Source of the DNA: Nitrospira sp.
Lineage (GTDB): Bacteria; Nitrospirota; Nitrospiria; Nitrospirales; UBA8639
NCBI GenBank assembly: GCA_028819435.1
Contig: JAPPLK010000069.1
Coordinates: forward strand, 1 to 41,973
Direction: 5' to 3'
DNA length: 41,973 nt
Numbering within the stretch: position 1 is the first letter of the stretch; the number at the start of each line of letters is the position of its first letter. The translations under genes and the position numbers were made by a program. This document shows positions 402 to 7,323 of this stretch, one piece after another. The notes below the pieces were generated by a model that worked only from the letters and a program-made list of their open reading frames with translations, was not told the origin of the DNA and ran no database searches.

Positions 402-404
402 TTG

Positions 405-818
405 ATGCGAACGAATTACCCCAAAGGCTTCTTCATGGAAAAGGCGCGACAAATAGTGAAGGATAGACCTGGATCGACTATGCGCGAGGTCGCAGAACGC
501 TTCCATCGGGACTACCCTGATTTCTCTAAAGCAAAGAATCCTCTTCAATCCTTGGGAACAACTCTCGCTAAACAAGTAAGGGAAGACCTGGAGCCACGTA
601 TAGAGGCTCAAGGTAGGCCTTTGCGTTTCTACTACAAGGATGATGCAACGCCTGCGGAGGGAGGAAAAGAAGCAATGCATTCCGTCGTTGGGCAATCTTC
701 GCCGGTATCTGTCATCACCATGACTGCTGGAGATACTCAATTCAAGGGACCTGCGACCAAGGAAAACATACGACGCATTAAACAGTGGTTGGAAGAAATG
801 GAAACTGATGCAAGTTAA
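405..818 (+). CDS. Small HTH-like protein upstream of the DNA methyltransferase
   Basis: A 137-residue, basic N-terminal protein. Residues about 8-65 look like a winged-helix unit: a first helix (ARQIVKDRP), a second (TMREVAERFHRDYP) and a basic third (SLGTTLAKQVREDLEP), followed by a strand ending in LRFYY. This resembles HARE-HTH or restriction-associated wHTH domains, but I cannot name the family. The C-terminal half is hydrophilic and ends in a short helix (IRRIKQWLEEME). ATG at 405 is chosen; the ribosome site GGAGG at 390-394 serves it or the in-frame TTG at 402 equally well. It lies directly upstream and co-oriented with a methyltransferase and restriction endonuclease, so a regulatory (controller-like) or DNA-binding accessory role is plausible, but this rests on position and fold impression only. 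Confidence 0.65.
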   Translation: MRTNYPKGFFMEKARQIVKDRPGSTMREVAERFHRDYPDFSKAKNPLQSLGTTLAKQVREDLEPRIEAQGRPLRFYYKDDATPAEGGKEAMHSVVGQSSPVSVITMTAGDTQFKGPATKENIRRIKQWLEEMETDAS

Positions 819-1004: not shown

Positions 1005-1988
1005 ATGGCAACGAGATCTGTCTTGAATTATGATCGCTATCTGCCTGGTTCGGTCGCCGAACTGAAAAACCCGCAAACTGGTATTCCCCGTATTGCAAAG
1101 GATAAACGGCTCCTCAAGCAGATAGAGGCTGCTGTCCAGCAAATCCCGACATCACACCGATTAGTCCAGGGAGATGCGCGCGAACTGACGTTTCTTGAAG
1201 ATGAATCCATTCATTTGGTGGTGACTTCCCCACCGTACTGGATCTTAAAAAAATACAAAGACCACCCTAGCCAGCTTGGGGATATCAAAAACTATGAAAC
1301 ATTTCTCCGTGAACTTGATAAAGTGTGGTCGCATTGTCATCGCGTGTTGGTCCCGGGAGGGCGTCTGATTTGCGTGGTCGGCGACGTCTGTCTGGCACGA
1401 AGAAAGAACGACGGAAGACACACGGTTGTTCCGCTTCATGCCTCTATTCAAGATCACTGCAGAATACTTGGGTTCGACAACCTGGCACCAATCATCTGGC
1501 ACAAGATTGCCAATGCCGTGTTTGAGGTGTCGGGCAATGGTGCCGGATTCTTGGGGAAACCTTATGAACCCAATGCCGTCATCAAGAACGACATTGAGTT
1601 CGTCCTGATGCAACGCAAACCGGGTGGATACCGGAATCCGACAGTCGCAATGCGGATACTCTCCGTCATATCTGATCAAAACCACAAACAATGGTTTCAG
1701 CCCATCTGGTCCGGCCTTACCGGCGCATCGACCCGACCGCACCCCGCCCCCTACCCAGAAGAATTAGCGTCGCGGTTGATCCGAATGTTCTCCTTCGTAG
1801 GAGATACCGTATTGGATCCGTTCATGGGAACGGGGACCACCACGGTTGCCGCGACCAAGTGGGGACGCAACTCCATTGGCGTGGAGATCGATCACTCTTA
1901 TTTTGACATCGCGGAGAAACGGATTCGCCACACGACGGGTTCATTGTTCTCTTGCGCCGAAATAAAAACAGAAACAAAAAAGAAATAG
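1005..1988 (+). CDS. Beta-class DNA methyltransferase (SPPYW type) of the XhoI-like restriction-modification system
   Basis: A DNA amino-methyltransferase that would protect host sites from the neighbouring endonuclease. Counting from ATG 1005 (327 aa), the catalytic motif IV TSPPYW is at about 74-79 and the SAM-binding motif I DPFMGTGTT is at about 271-279, followed by GVEID. This IV-before-I order is the beta class. SPPYW is most typical of N4-cytosine enzymes, although it does not exclude N6-adenine. The frame stays open upstream to TTG 909 with an in-frame GTG at 951; none of the three starts has a good ribosome site. I chose 1005 because similar proteins begin MA-T and the upstream residues look uncharacteristic. 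The endonuclease start follows the stop by only 3 bases. Class assignment is firm; the modified base and target site are inferred. Confidence 0.88.
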   Translation: MATRSVLNYDRYLPGSVAELKNPQTGIPRIAKDKRLLKQIEAAVQQIPTSHRLVQGDARELTFLEDESIHLVVTSPPYWILKKYKDHPSQLGDIKNYETFLRELDKVWSHCHRVLVPGGRLICVVGDVCLARRKNDGRHTVVPLHASIQDHCRILGFDNLAPIIWHKIANAVFEVSGNGAGFLGKPYEPNAVIKNDIEFVLMQRKPGGYRNPTVAMRILSVISDQNHKQWFQPIWSGLTGASTRPHPAPYPEELASRLIRMFSFVGDTVLDPFMGTGTTTVAATKWGRNSIGVEIDHSYFDIAEKRIRHTTGSLFSCAEIKTETKKK

Positions 1989-1991
1989 GTT

Positions 1992-2710
1992 ATGCAAGAC
2001 CGGTTGGCGAAAGCCATTCAATATTTTTGGAAGGCAAGAAGTCATCAGCACAAAAAGCAAGGGGCAACCTCGGGAAAAAGGATGCCGGCAACCGGAGTGC
2101 CGTTACTGGCGGCAAACATCTTAACGGGTTCATAAGGCTTTTGACTGAGCTGCTGTCAGAGGCAGGGTTGCCGGATTCCACGATCCATACCAGAACTACT
2201 ACCCTGCCTGGCTATTTCAGACCCACCAAGAATTGGGATTTGCTGGTGGTCGTGGACGACCGGCTTTTAGCATCGATTGAATTCAAAGCCCATATCGGAC
2301 CGTCTTTTGGTAACAATTTCAACAATCGCGTAGAAGAAGCCCTAGGCAACTCAACGGATCTGCTAACCGCGTACCGGGAAGGTAAATTCAAGCCGTCACA
2401 AAAGCCGTGGCTCGGGTGGTTAATGCTTTTGGAAGATACGCCGAAATCCACGTCACCAGTTAAAGTAGACGAGCCGCATTTTGAGGTATTCCCCGAATTC
2501 AAGACGACGTCATACGCCAAACGCTACGAATTGTTTTGTGAACGCCTGATGCGGGAACGCTTATATGATGGAACTTGTTTGATTTTGTCCGACAGAAAGG
2601 GTGGTCTGAAAGGGAAATTCACCGAGCCAAATCAAGAATTCAGCTTTGCGACATTCGCAGCATCGTTGACCGCTCACGCAATGGCGTATGCCAACATGCG
2701 AAAGCCATAA
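1992..2710 (+). CDS. XhoI/PaeR7I-type restriction endonuclease, with an apparent -1 frameshift near the N-terminus
   Basis: A type II restriction enzyme of the XhoI/PaeR7I family, which cuts CTCGAG. The body shows family hallmarks: LPGYFRPTKNWD, then a PD-(D/E)XK core with Asp encoded at 2237 and E-F-K at 2279-2287, then GPSFGNNFNNR. The body is open back to TTG 1952, but that stretch overlaps the methyltransferase and looks unrelated to the family. A good N-terminus starts at ATG 1992, 3 bases after the methyltransferase stop, in the next frame (MQDRLAKAIQYFWKAR), and stops at 2133-2135. One extra A in the A5 run at 2075-2079 (or at 2052-2056) would join the two into a 239-residue protein, close to the family's roughly 245. 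So the gene is disrupted, phase-variable, recoded or mis-sequenced. Family assignment is strong; activity is uncertain. Confidence 0.82.
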
Positions 2711-2782
2711 GGGGCCGGAAGGCTATTCTCGCTACATGCTCTCCAACACAATTCTGAGGTCTATTTCTATCTAATACGCTAA

Positions 2783-4408
2783 CTATGCGCCGATGCCTCG
2801 TGGCTTAATCATCTCCATGGTATCGATCCCAGCCAGCATGACGTCCACTCCATCCGGTGCTCGTCCACTCTCAAAAATTGCTTGCCAGTAATCGTTGTTT
2901 CGTTTTCCGCCAAACACCGACAATGATAGGTCTTTGTTGACCCACAGCGGTAGCTTTTTCAAAGCATCGACGAAGTTCTCAATATTCTCCCAGCAAGCGT
3001 CCGGAATCGGATACTGGAATAACTTATTCTCATCAATCGGCTTGCCTGTAGTGATGAAATAATTCTGAACGATTTGGCGTAAATATCGCAGCCAGTTATA
3101 GAGAATCTCTTCTTTGGCCATTCGAAAGGCGCGAAGGTGCGGCTCCGGGATACTCTTACCTTTCCGGATATCACTCTCGATGCGCCGTGTACCGAGTGAA
3201 TGATCAAACATTCCTATGTAAATCTTCTCCGCAATAATGTTCATCAAACGGACAATTTGTTCGATTTCGAGTCGCCGCGGATTTGCCCCTTCTTCGGATT
3301 TGTAATTGAAGGGCGTTGTAAGCAAATCGCTGTGGACAAAGAATGAATAAAATGTCTTGTCAATCGTGCTGTAACTCAGAGGCATGTCGGTGCCGCGTCC
3401 ACCATAGTCAATGTAATCCCGCAGCTTGTTGTCGGTGTGCGTTGTGACGCTACTACGAATCCAATCGATGATATATCTCTTCATCTCTCGGCTTTCTCCT
3501 TTGAAGTGATTTGCAAGATCACGTTCTGAGAAACTTTCGTCGGCCTCGTCTCTGCCACATTCACGTCTGTAACGATCCATCCTATCTGCCAACAACGAAC
3601 TGCCGAGACTGCGCTGGACTGACTTGTCGAATGCAACTTGACGTAGCGTGGTTCCCGCATGCGTGTTTGCAGTCAGCAGGATGTCACGGTCTGGATTGAT
3701 AAACACTCGGACTGGTAGACAGCGGACACCTAGAAGAATTTGTGCCGCTGTCTTGTGTTGACCGTCGAAGATATAAACCTTGGAAGCCTTGCCATGAGAA
3801 GTATCTAGCCACCCTAAAGCGATATGAAGTTGCGGCAACTTTCTATGGAATTCTTCTAGTATTTTTTTGAGATTTTTCCCTATCGCCCGTGGATTAATGT
3901 GGTCATCATGATGCAGATACTCGATGGGTAGATTCAGAAAGCTGTATCGAAATTTGGAAATTTTGTCTTCATAAATGGGAACCGTGAGAACATCGTTCTG
4001 TCCAATATCTGAAAACCCTGTCTTCAGCGTGTCTCCTTCGACATTTGTTGATAGTGGATGTTTTGCCCCACCATACTCGGAGAGAACATCTCCGAGATTG
4101 GGAGAGCGGTCTTCCGATTTAATCGACTCAGTTATTCTGTCGAAGGAGGCAAGGATTCTCGCCACCCGGAGATCGCTGGCTTGTTTTGTTCGATTGCACG
4201 AATCGTGGGTAACGGCGAAATTGTCCGGTCCGTCTTTCCCGCCAACCTTAGTTGGCTCCACATGATCTATATCAATATGGTTACCGTGAATGGCGAGATC
4301 AATAACCTTGCCACAGATGAAGCAGTTGCTTGCCTGCGAGCTCAAAAGATCCTTGATGAGGCTTTGCCGATCTTCATTCGACAGTCTACTTAGATAGAGA
4401 GATCCCAT
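2783..4408 (-). CDS. HNH nuclease/DGQH (ParB-like) domain fusion protein
   Basis: A 541-residue protein starting at ATG 4408 with AGGAG four bases upstream. Residues 29-72 form an HNH nuclease unit: C29-x2-C32, D48-H49, N63, H68, C71-N72, with the usual GG between. Around 145-270 there is a DGQHR/ParB-like module with the diagnostic FDGQHKTAAQ at 214-223, followed by PVRVFINPDRD and an NTHAGTTLRQ stretch. The remaining 270 residues are mostly helical and unrecognised. DGQHR proteins occur in DNA modification and defence settings, and HNH domains cut DNA or RNA. The gene lies 118 bp downstream of, and co-oriented with, the NDT-like/ATP-cone gene, and faces the restriction genes. I infer a nuclease effector paired with a nucleotide-sensing partner. 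The domain calls are read from motifs and the system role is speculative. Confidence 0.78.
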   Translation of the reverse strand: MGSLYLSRLSNEDRQSLIKDLLSSQASNCFICGKVIDLAIHGNHIDIDHVEPTKVGGKDGPDNFAVTHDSCNRTKQASDLRVARILASFDRITESIKSEDRSPNLGDVLSEYGGAKHPLSTNVEGDTLKTGFSDIGQNDVLTVPIYEDKISKFRYSFLNLPIEYLHHDDHINPRAIGKNLKKILEEFHRKLPQLHIALGWLDTSHGKASKVYIFDGQHKTAAQILLGVRCLPVRVFINPDRDILLTANTHAGTTLRQVAFDKSVQRSLGSSLLADRMDRYRRECGRDEADESFSERDLANHFKGESREMKRYIIDWIRSSVTTHTDNKLRDYIDYGGRGTDMPLSYSTIDKTFYSFFVHSDLLTTPFNYKSEEGANPRRLEIEQIVRLMNIIAEKIYIGMFDHSLGTRRIESDIRKGKSIPEPHLRAFRMAKEEILYNWLRYLRQIVQNYFITTGKPIDENKLFQYPIPDACWENIENFVDALKKLPLWVNKDLSLSVFGGKRNNDYWQAIFESGRAPDGVDVMLAGIDTMEMIKPRGIGA

Positions 4409-4526
4409 TACACTCCTCGTTTATAAGGACACAGTGACAGCAAAATTCAAAGAAGGTTGGTTATTCCTCTGCGAGGTGGATCGTATATCGAATGTCAAAT
4501 GGTGGTTAATGGACAGACGAAGACCT

Positions 4527-5648
4527 TTAATCAAACCAGCGGTTCTCCTTCTTGAGCAAGGCCTTGATGTCGTTCGCTATTCGCTCCTTCTCCCCCTTGT
4601 CCTGGACGCGGATCTGGAACGTCTGCATCGTTCCCTTTTTCCCCTTGTCGTAGAGCTTTCCCTCAATCAGGAATGGCGTTGGCGAGGACTCAACGAATGC
4701 CCCGCACGTGCTTCTCGAGTCCTTACTGTTGAATTGTCTTAGATCAATCCTCGTAATGCCAGGCGTTGCAGAAATGGTCCGGAACACGTGCCGGGCGTCT
4801 TTTGATGGGATTTCATCGAGTGCTTTAATAGCCTTTCCCCAAATTGTCGCGTGACTCTTGGATGAGGCCACATCCACCTTCATTCCTGAACTAGGCACCG
4901 TAGATGATGACCGATTTTTGAAGAAGTCCTCATTCTTCTTCAGGACGGTGGTTTTCCATTCTACCAGAACGCCCTTGACGGTTTCTGCATGGACGGAATC
5001 CGTTTCGAGATATTCAAGAGTTGCCACAATCGCGTTGTTGATGTCGGAAGTGGTCAACGAGTGACTAATCCTCCGCGTGCTCTTCTTCAGACGTTCAATG
5101 ATTGCAGGCAAGGCGAGCCGAGGCACCACGATGTCATCGCATTTCGCGCGTCTGCATGCAGTGCGAATCGAGACGACCAGCTTGCGCCGCTTGAATGGTT
5201 CCCGCTGTGACTTGCGCTTTACGACCTCCCACGTAGCTTCTGCCCGCAACAGGTCCAATAATGTATTTGCGGCCTTCAACGGCGTGTCCGTGACAGCGTC
5301 TGCGTAGAATTCCAAGGTCCGGTTTTTGAGGTTGTTAGGGTCGGCAACGACGACGGGGCGCCCTTCCTTATGTGCATGCACGATGCCGATGGCCGACCCG
5401 ATCGACTCGCGCCACATGTTGACGAGTAATCCGTCCGCTTCCTTGATGGCCCTCAAGTCTTCTTCAACGGCCTGGTGTGCCGTTGCACCCGGCCTGAGCA
5501 ATGGCAATTCAGCGGGATCGATGAAGTCGAAGGACTTACTGTACTGCGACTTCTTGATGACGTTACGCCATTGATGTACCTGATCCTTATTGCTGCATCC
5601 GCTGATAGGCCCAGCCAGATAGACACGAAACTTCTGTTGCTTCGACAT
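4527..5648 (-). CDS. Nucleoside 2-deoxyribosyltransferase-like/ATP-cone fusion protein
   Basis: A 373-residue protein from ATG 5648, chosen over upstream in-frame codons because GGAGGG stands 5-6 bases before it. Residues about 7-103 have the nucleoside 2-deoxyribosyltransferase-like Rossmann pattern: VYLAGPISG at the first strand, then ADGLLVNMW, then SIGSAIG and GRPVVV. In related proteins the SxGTxxE segment carries the catalytic Glu; here that place is Gly88. Residues about 141-226 resemble an ATP-cone, the nucleotide-binding module of ribonucleotide reductase and NrdR: PFKRRKLVVSIRTACRRA, later SDINNAIVATLEYLE. The C-terminal 145 residues are not recognised. It probably binds nucleotides rather than transferring deoxyribose. 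It precedes the HNH/DGQH gene by 118 bp, probably in one transcription unit. Domain calls are by eye. Confidence 0.72.
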   Translation of the reverse strand: MSKQQKFRVYLAGPISGCSNKDQVHQWRNVIKKSQYSKSFDFIDPAELPLLRPGATAHQAVEEDLRAIKEADGLLVNMWRESIGSAIGIVHAHKEGRPVVVADPNNLKNRTLEFYADAVTDTPLKAANTLLDLLRAEATWEVVKRKSQREPFKRRKLVVSIRTACRRAKCDDIVVPRLALPAIIERLKKSTRRISHSLTTSDINNAIVATLEYLETDSVHAETVKGVLVEWKTTVLKKNEDFFKNRSSSTVPSSGMKVDVASSKSHATIWGKAIKALDEIPSKDARHVFRTISATPGITRIDLRQFNSKDSRSTCGAFVESSPTPFLIEGKLYDKGKKGTMQTFQIRVQDKGEKERIANDIKALLKKENRWFD

Positions 5649-5674
5649 GCCGACCCTCCACATCGACCGAGTCA

Positions 5675-5703
5675 ATTGTATACAGCCGGACATTTGAAAG
5701 CAA
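5675..5703 (-). promoter_or_regulatory. Putative promoter of the NDT-like/ATP-cone gene
   Basis: On the minus strand a -35 TTGCTT (5703-5698) and a -10 TACAAT (5680-5675) are separated by 17 bp. The start point would fall about 20 bases before ATG 5648, leaving room for the strong GGAGGG ribosome site. Pattern-based assignment. Confidence 0.45.
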
Positions 5704-5933
5704 AAAACTTCACCGTATCCTTGCACCTATGTAGACCGAACTTCAGCACCTGCTCCAGCTACCGTTCCTCATATCACGCGCACCCATCGTGACGCCGCTA
5801 CCACGGCGTCTTCGTCCGAAAATTCAAGTAGCGCGACAGGATCACTCCCAAGATAACTCCCTGAGCCGCACGGGAGTTCCATTTATTCACTGCCCTGTTG
5901 AACGAAATGCAGTAGGGGGTTGTCCGCCCTCGC

Positions 5934-7139
5934 TCAGTGAAGGAACCAGGGCAGGACGCGGAAGCCCTTGAAGTCGAAGCTCTCCTCTCCGCCGTGGACT
6001 AGGACGCCACCTTGGTTCGGATTGGAGGGGATCGACGTCCACCAGGCGAGCTTATCGACGGCGTCACCGGCAACGGTCTGACCCGACTTCACCTCCACCG
6101 GGATGATTCGTTCGCCGGTGTCGATCAGGACGTCGATCTCGTGCCCGGTTGCGTCTCTCCAGAAAAACAACGGCGGGTCGCGGCGGGTCGCGGCGAAGTT
6201 CTTGACCAACTCCGAGACGACGAACGATTCGAACACGGCACCCCGTAGCGGGTGGCGCTCCAACGTCCCGGCGTCCCGAATATCGAGCAGGTAGCAGATG
6301 AGCCCAGTATCGAGGAAGTGCAGCCGCGGGCGTTTACGCATGCGCTTGCGATAGTTCGCATGATGGGGCGGAAGGGTCGTGGCCAGGAAACCGATCTCGA
6401 GGGCCGTGAGCCAACGTTTCGCGGTCTGCTGGGTGATCCCAACGTCGCTGGCGAGCGTGGTCAGGTTGAGTTCCTGGGCCGTGTGCGCGGCGGCCAGTCG
6501 AACGAAACGCTCGAAGCTCCGTTGATCGGAGATCTGCATGACTTCGCGGAGATCACGTTCGACGTAGGTGCGAAAATAGTCCGACAGCCACTCCCCGGCC
6601 GGTATGCCTAGGTCGTGAATGCGCGGGTAGAAGCCGTCGAGCAGCGTGTCCCAGAGCCCTTTGCGCGGTAGCCGCCTCTTACGCCCGGTGGTTTTCCTTC
6701 GAGTACGATCGAGGTTCAGCGGGTCGAGCGGAGGACTTTCGCGCAACTCCGAGAGCGACAACGGATATAATCGGAGAAAAGCCGTACGCCCGGCGAGCGT
6801 CTGCGACACCGATTCCATCAGGAGAAGATTTTGTGAGCCGGTCAGGATGAAGCGCCCGGGAAGGCTGTCCGCATCGACGAGTACCTGAATGTAGGAGAGC
6901 AATTCGGGAACGCGCTGGATCTCATCGAGAATCAGACGGTTCGCCTGGGTCAGAAAGCTCCGCGGGTCCTGGACCGCCCGCGCTCGAACGTCCGGTGCCT
7001 CAAGCGACAGGTAGCGATATTCGCCAAAGAGTGCCTGAACCAGCGTCGTCTTCCCCGATTGACGGGGACCCGTGAGCGTCACAACCGGGTAGGTCGCGGC
7101 AGCGGCCTTCAGTGCTTGGGTCAAGTGACGGCGTAACAT
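5934..7139 (-). CDS. AAA+ ATPase with C-terminal DUF4143 domain
   Basis: A 401-residue protein of the large AAA_14/DUF4143 family. The Walker A motif TGPRQSGKTT is near residues 23-32, Walker B with LILDEIQRVPEL near 70, and the sensor-like ILTGSQNLLL near 100. The C-terminal half has the DUF4143 pattern, ending with a nuclease-like segment HEIDVLID...IIPVEVKSG that has the D-x(n)-E-x-K spacing seen in this family. Cellular function is unknown; members are abundant in mobile and defence regions. ATG 7139 is the only good start but has a weak ribosome site. The gene stands alone. The codon usage looks GC-rich and regular, unlike the more AT-rich restriction genes to its left. Confidence 0.88.
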   Translation of the reverse strand: MLRRHLTQALKAAAATYPVVTLTGPRQSGKTTLVQALFGEYRYLSLEAPDVRARAVQDPRSFLTQANRLILDEIQRVPELLSYIQVLVDADSLPGRFILTGSQNLLLMESVSQTLAGRTAFLRLYPLSLSELRESPPLDPLNLDRTRRKTTGRKRRLPRKGLWDTLLDGFYPRIHDLGIPAGEWLSDYFRTYVERDLREVMQISDQRSFERFVRLAAAHTAQELNLTTLASDVGITQQTAKRWLTALEIGFLATTLPPHHANYRKRMRKRPRLHFLDTGLICYLLDIRDAGTLERHPLRGAVFESFVVSELVKNFAATRRDPPLFFWRDATGHEIDVLIDTGERIIPVEVKSGQTVAGDAVDKLAWWTSIPSNPNQGGVLVHGGEESFDFKGFRVLPWFLH

Positions 7140-7323
7140 TCCAACGACTTTAGCAAGTCACACGATTCATGTCAATTCAGTGATACTATCATTGATAAAG
7201 CATGAATTGAACGCTCACGCAATAGTGTGATGCCAACATGCAGGTGCCACCAGTAAAGCTACCTGCCACCGTTGATTCAATTAGGAACGGCTCAGGTGAT
7301 GTGCGTCAAATAATGCAGATTTC

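What the first reader, a model, noticed from the sequence alone, without database searches (positions are those of the whole stretch)
1992..2135. XhoI-type nuclease has its N-terminus in a different frame, joined only by an A-run slip
The body of the endonuclease lies in one frame; a family-like N-terminus begins at ATG 1992 in the next frame, 3 bases after the methyltransferase. One more A in the A5 run at 2075-2079, or the A5 run at 2052-2056, joins them. Possible causes are a sequencing error, an inactivated enzyme, on/off phase variation, or -1 programmed frameshifting (G GGA AAA AGG context).
Basis: seen in the sequence. Interest (0 to 1): 0.65.

Follow-up and report, generated by a model that had tools for sequence, protein, structure and literature searches.

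The report
Restriction gene broken by single-base deletion
A DNA-cutting defence enzyme gene in a sponge-associated bacterium appears to have lost one base near its start, probably switching the enzyme off while its protective partner gene stays intact; this is ordinary decay of a restriction system, and not the A-run slippage or programmed frameshift first suggested.

Summary
The frame break is real in the assembly. ATG 1992 opens the XhoI/PaeR7I-family N-terminus, and the rest of the enzyme (to 2710) lies in the -1 frame. About 110 homologues, including five from the same genus, have both parts in one frame.

The A-run explanation is not supported. In the nearest congeners (G001, G006, G007) both A5 runs have the same length and place as here. 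The window is one base short elsewhere, at about 2064-2074, in a variable linker between the N-terminal helix and the catalytic body.

The body is still under strong purifying selection (4 nonsynonymous versus 48 synonymous differences from G001), so the break is recent, an artefact, or bypassed.

The R gene is a hot spot of damage in this genus. Of seven genomes with the methyltransferase, three have an intact nuclease. One has a TAG, one has ATA for the start codon, one (this window) has the frame break, and one single-contig genome lacks the nuclease. All seven methyltransferases are intact.

Best reading: a recent inactivating single-base deletion in an eroding type II R-M system. An assembly error is the main rival. 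Phase variation and programmed frameshifting have no comparative support, though a chance G_GGA_AAA heptamer would restore the frame.

The parts
1005..1988 (+). N6/N4 DNA methyltransferase (327 aa, PF01555), intact; partner of the nuclease
   Evidence: Pfam PF01555 E=1e-39 on the longer ORF; ATG 1005 conserved in five congeners; intact in seven genomes of the genus
1992..2135 (+). N-terminal open frame of the XhoI-family nuclease. Family-like up to about codon 27 (2072), then out of frame to TAA 2133-2135
2064..2074 (+). Site of the frame break: window is one base shorter than all congeners, within a variable linker codon patch
   Evidence: DNA alignments; patch lies between helix 2-22 and the low-pLDDT loop 29-40 of the model
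2072..2710 (+). Nuclease body in the -1 frame (GKKDAGNRSAVTGGK... to stop), PD-(D/E)XK type, catalytic D83, E97 and K99 of the family present
   Evidence: PF04555, A1 alignment, model and VIA-align to restriction enzymes such as PspGI Z 10.7
2052..2056 (+).
2075..2079 (+).
2072..2078 (+). G_GGA_AAA, a potential -1 slippery heptamer created by the frame change; slipping here would give a 239-aa family-like product
   Evidence: codon reading; no supporting structure or conservation

Best explanation
This is a type II R-M locus (an N6/N4 methyltransferase followed by an XhoI/PaeR7I-family nuclease) in a bacterium of the sponge-associated Nitrospirales genus 'bin75'. The nuclease gene has recently lost one base in its linker region. 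Translation from the native, probably coupled, start at 1992 then gives a 47-aa fragment, and the body is read only from a poor TTG at 1952 or not at all, without the conserved N-terminal helix. The likely result is a loss of restriction while methylation continues, one step from an R-M system to a solitary methyltransferase. Shown: the frame break, its position, the intact MTase frame, the conservation of the missing N-terminus, and different lesions in congeners. Inferred: that the base is really missing in the cell, that the enzyme is inactive, and that the MTase is active.
For: About 110 homologues have the N-terminus in frame. A single missing base lies at about 2064-2074, with A runs unchanged in the close congeners. 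The N-terminal helix with A8, W13, R16, Q19 and Q23 is 90-100% conserved in the A1 alignment and modelled as a confident part of the fold. Other congeners carry different lesions in the same gene: TAG at codon 143 in G007 and ATA in place of the start ATG in G013. Single-contig genome G010 has the MTase at 84% identity but no nuclease. The MTase is open in all seven. In 113 gene alignments (about 116 kb) of this assembly against G001, only this gene shows a clear frame break. In the neighbourhood scan of the congeners, the only interrupted gene found in G007 is this one.
Against: The body shows almost no decay: 4 nonsynonymous against 48 synonymous differences from G001, omega 0.019, and 2 nonsynonymous against 6 synonymous window-only changes. 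The break must therefore be young, which is also what an assembly error would look like. No reads or second assembly of this species could be checked, and the ATA start of G013 could in principle still initiate weakly.
Confidence: 0.62

Rival explanations
1. Assembly or consensus error: the gene in the cell is intact, and one base was lost in the MAG, possibly from strain mixing in this variable patch.
For: Body and N-terminus both remain under strong constraint. The assembly is in 114 contigs. The published survey of solitary REs notes that many frame breaks in R-M genes are sequencing errors, e.g. MjaVIP, and that 109 of 138 checked Brucella cases were not confirmed (PMC3488263).
Against: No other clear frame break in 113 gene alignments of the same assembly against G001. 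The site is not a long homopolymer. Congeners lost the same gene by other changes, so real loss is expected here.
Confidence: 0.28
2. Translational bypass: ribosomes slip -1 on G_GGA_AAA (2072-2078) and make some full-length 239-aa nuclease, so the break lowers rather than abolishes expression.
For: The heptamer is in the right phase, a -1 slip gives exactly the family-like sequence ...QGATSGKKDAG..., and a purine-rich AAGGGG lies about 8 bases upstream. Purifying selection on the body is intact.
Against: No relative has the break, so it is not a conserved program. The heptamer and AAGGGG are ordinary coding sequence in congeners. Downstream folding is at shuffle level, z -0.13 to -0.94. G_GG.A_AA.A was inefficient in earlier E. 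coli work and X_XX.A_AA.G motifs are the proficient ones (PMC4066793).
Confidence: 0.06
3. Phase variation: the number of bases in a short tract switches reversibly and turns the nuclease on and off.
For: Frameshift switching of R-M genes is known, e.g. repeat-length changes in Mycoplasma agalactiae MTases (PMC9465063).
Against: Tracts here are five As or fewer, the A runs do not vary in the close congeners, no homopolymer of 6 or more lies in the R gene, and congeners carry irreversible-type lesions at other sites.
Confidence: 0.03
4. A real alternative N-terminus starting at TTG 1952 inside the methyltransferase gene.
For: The frame is open from 1952.
Against: No homologue has it, and it removes nearly invariant residues while a family-like N-terminus sits in the other frame.
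Confidence: 0.01

Closest known systems
XhoI/PaeR7I family type II restriction endonucleases (PF04555)
   Same: Whole body matches (E=1e-78), catalytic and conserved positions present, adjacent DNA methyltransferase
   Different: Frame broken between N-terminal helix and body
R-M systems with a degraded partner gene and the transition to solitary methyltransferases
   Same: Intact methyltransferase next to a damaged nuclease; congener G010 has the methyltransferase alone
   Different: Only a single base is missing and the rest of the gene is still fresh
Programmed -1 frameshifting of the dnaX or insertion-sequence type
   Same: A -1 heptamer in the right phase and an upstream purine stretch
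   Different: Not conserved, no significant downstream structure, less efficient motif type in bacteria
Phase-variable R-M genes (tract-length switching)
   Same: A one-base length change flips the frame
   Different: No long repeat tract; tract lengths constant in the close congeners

Membership tests
XhoI/PaeR7I family endonuclease (PF04555) | Match to the Pfam profile over nearly its full length | tested here: met
   263.7 bits, profile 5-190 of 191
XhoI/PaeR7I family endonuclease (PF04555) | PD-(D/E)XK-type catalytic residues | tested here: met
   D83, E97 invariant and K99 nearly invariant in A1, present in the window; fold of the G001 homologue resembles restriction enzymes, PspGI Z 10.7, rmsd 3.3, 171 aligned
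XhoI/PaeR7I family endonuclease (PF04555) | Conserved N-terminal helix in the same reading frame as the body | tested here: not met
   in another frame in this window; so the locus is a damaged copy of a member gene rather than an intact member
XhoI/PaeR7I family endonuclease (PF04555) | Cleavage at CTCGAG | not testable with these tools
   CTCGAG occurs 4 times against 11.1 expected in the window, suggestive only
Programmed -1 ribosomal frameshift | In-phase slippery heptamer | tested here: met
   TC G_GGA_AAA A at 2070-2079
Programmed -1 ribosomal frameshift | Conservation of the two-frame arrangement in relatives | tested here: not met
   No relative has a break at this position
Programmed -1 ribosomal frameshift | Stimulatory RNA structure downstream | tested here: not met
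   z-scores -0.13, -0.94, -0.00
Phase-variable gene | Hypervariable simple-sequence tract in the reading frame | tested here: not met
   No homopolymer of 6 or more in 1992-2710; A5 runs constant in the close congeners
Pseudogenised R gene beside an intact M gene | Intact methyltransferase frame next to an interrupted nuclease frame | tested here: met
Pseudogenised R gene beside an intact M gene | Loss of nuclease activity in the cell | not testable with these tools
   needs a restriction assay

The most novel reading that the evidence does not exclude
A recent one-base deletion has turned the nuclease into a low-level enzyme made only by -1 slippage on G_GGA_AAA, so the cell keeps weak restriction; this would be a natural case of compensatory frameshifting in a restriction enzyme.
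Probability: 0.05. Interest if true: 0.6.

Novelty: new member of a known kind. Interest (0 to 1): 0.2.

Why it matters
On its own it is a routine broken restriction gene. Together with its congeners it gives a small natural series (intact, start codon changed, nonsense, frame break, gene absent) of nuclease loss with the methyltransferase always kept in one genus of sponge-associated nitrite oxidisers. That is a usable case for asking whether methylation is retained for its own sake. It also shows that an apparent slippery-site frameshift can be resolved by comparing close relatives.

Tried and rejected
A-run slippage was rejected by DNA alignment. Programmed frameshifting was checked by RNA folding, conservation and literature on heptamers. 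A second frame break at the MTase N-terminus (flagged) was rejected: the true MTase start is ATG 1005, and the flagged part is non-coding upstream sequence. A clustered-mutation or conversion patch around the break was considered, but strict window-only changes are not clustered. PDB sequence search gave nothing and Foldseek gave no E below 0.001; the VIA list was used only to place the N-terminal helix and the general fold. No phage record matched. Several stop and frame candidates look like shadow ORFs or sequence upstream of starts and were not counted. First attempts with a wrong frame gave no result.

Full report
Setting. The window is contig C26 (41,973 bases, the complete contig) of a 2.62-Mb, 114-contig assembly. 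Congener G006 has a contig of the same length (54,036) as the GenBank record of Nitrospira sp. bin75, also fetched as L003. [quoted passage not shown]

Observation. An N6/N4 methyltransferase (PF01555) ends at TAG 1986-1988; its start is ATG 1005, conserved in five congeners. Three bases later ATG 1992 opens a 47-aa frame that begins like an XhoI-family nuclease. The rest of the nuclease (PF04555, E=1e-78) lies one frame back and ends at 2710.

Where the base is missing. I collected 80 homologues from genome contigs, 9 from viral contigs and 30 loci from whole genomes. The genome contigs and whole-genome sets overlap: some are the same genome. In the inspected homologues the N-terminal peptide and the body are in one frame. 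The DNA alignment with five congeners shows CACAAAAAGCAAGGGGGATCCACAGGGAAAAAGGATGCC in G007 (G001 and G006 differ by a base or so), and CACAAAAAGCAAGGGGCAACCTCGGGAAAAAGGATGCC here. The A5 run at 2052-2056 and the A5 run at 2075-2079 are unchanged; in G012 the second is A6 through an in-frame substitution. The window is one base short between 2064 and 2074, where three codons differ from all congeners. This stretch is the least conserved part of the N-terminal region (query positions 24-27) and sits just before a low-confidence loop of the AlphaFold model (residues 29-40). So the A-run explanation fails.

What is lost. Residues A8, W13, R16, Q19 and Q23 of the N-terminal helix are 90-100% conserved in the 59-sequence alignment (wider tally). 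The model of the intact G001 homologue (mean pLDDT 91.9) places residues 2-22 in a confident helix, and structural alignments with restriction enzymes extend over it (PspGI, Z 10.7, rmsd 3.3, 171 residues, model 1-233). A product without this helix is unlikely to be fully functional; that step is inference.

Age of the break. Window against G001, the body has 4 nonsynonymous and 48 synonymous differences (omega 0.019). On sites changed only in the window there are 2 nonsynonymous and 6 synonymous; being dead for the whole branch is rejected (P about 1e-6), for half of it P is 0.004, for a quarter 0.15. The break is therefore recent, an artefact, or bypassed. Selection alone cannot separate these.

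Artefact or real. Against G001, 113 gene alignments covering about 116 kb of this assembly show one clear frame break, this gene, with the criterion of both parts at least 75% identical. The reverse direction lists several candidates that I did not resolve, some of them probably shadow ORFs. In the local neighbourhoods of the congeners, the only interrupted gene in G007 is again the nuclease (W to TAG at codon 143); one adjacent ORF in G006 and one short ORF in the window also show stops. G013 has ATA where the others have the start ATG, with TAG two codons upstream and no ATG, GTG or TTG before the conserved region. G010, a one-contig genome, has the methyltransferase at 84% identity with no nuclease remnant detectable nearby; another methyltransferase follows it instead. 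Thus of seven methyltransferase carriers in the genus, three have an apparently intact nuclease (G001, G006, G012), and all seven methyltransferases are open. The rough calculation that two of four local lesions fall in the R gene by chance gives P about 0.006; it is post hoc and should be read lightly. Broken homologues outside the genus are interrupted at other places (L042, L045, L070, L080, L105). Real loss is thus the expected fate of this gene here, but an assembly error cannot be excluded without reads; the literature warns that many such breaks in R-M genes were sequencing errors (PMC3488263).

Programmed frameshifting and phase variation. The change of frame happens to put G_GGA_AAA (2072-2078) in phase, and a -1 slip there gives precisely the family-like product of 239 aa. 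But the heptamer and the AAGGGG upstream are the Gln-Gly and Gly-Lys-Lys codons of the congeners, so any single-base loss upstream would create the same picture. No relative shares the arrangement, RNA folding downstream is not better than shuffled, and in E. coli X_XX.A_AA.G motifs are the proficient ones while G_GG.A_AA.A was reported inefficient in earlier tests (PMC4066793). Tract-switching normally needs longer tracts than occur here (the need for long tracts is general knowledge).

Verdict. A damaged member of a known family, most likely a recently inactivated restriction gene next to an intact methyltransferase gene. Low interest alone, modest interest as one of several different nuclease losses in one symbiont genus.

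Noticed in passing
window 2730-7206: About 4.5 kb just downstream of the nuclease is absent at this place in G001, G006, G012 and G013; pieces of it occur in G007 and near the MTase of G010. It holds an HNH protein (2783-4408 -), a 399-aa ORF (4527-5726 -) and a protein (5934-7139 -) matching PADLOC PDC-S01.
   Followed up: partly
L185 3425-5680 (G010): A congener has the methyltransferase without its nuclease, followed directly by a second, different methyltransferase gene.
   Followed up: partly
window, whole: CTCGAG (XhoI site) occurs 4 times where 11.1 are expected; two of the four lie in the 4.5-kb insert at 4714 and 6396.
   Followed up: no
plasmid hits H31-H40, e.g. L186 3001-3426: Many enterobacterial and Pseudomonas plasmids carry a PaeR7I-like fragment lacking its N-terminal part, with no gene annotated and no methyltransferase listed beside it in the one inspected.
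   Followed up: partly
window 402-818 +: 138-aa ORF upstream of the methyltransferase without any Pfam, NCBIfam or PADLOC match; no DNA match at this place in G001, G006, G007, G012 or G013.
   Followed up: no
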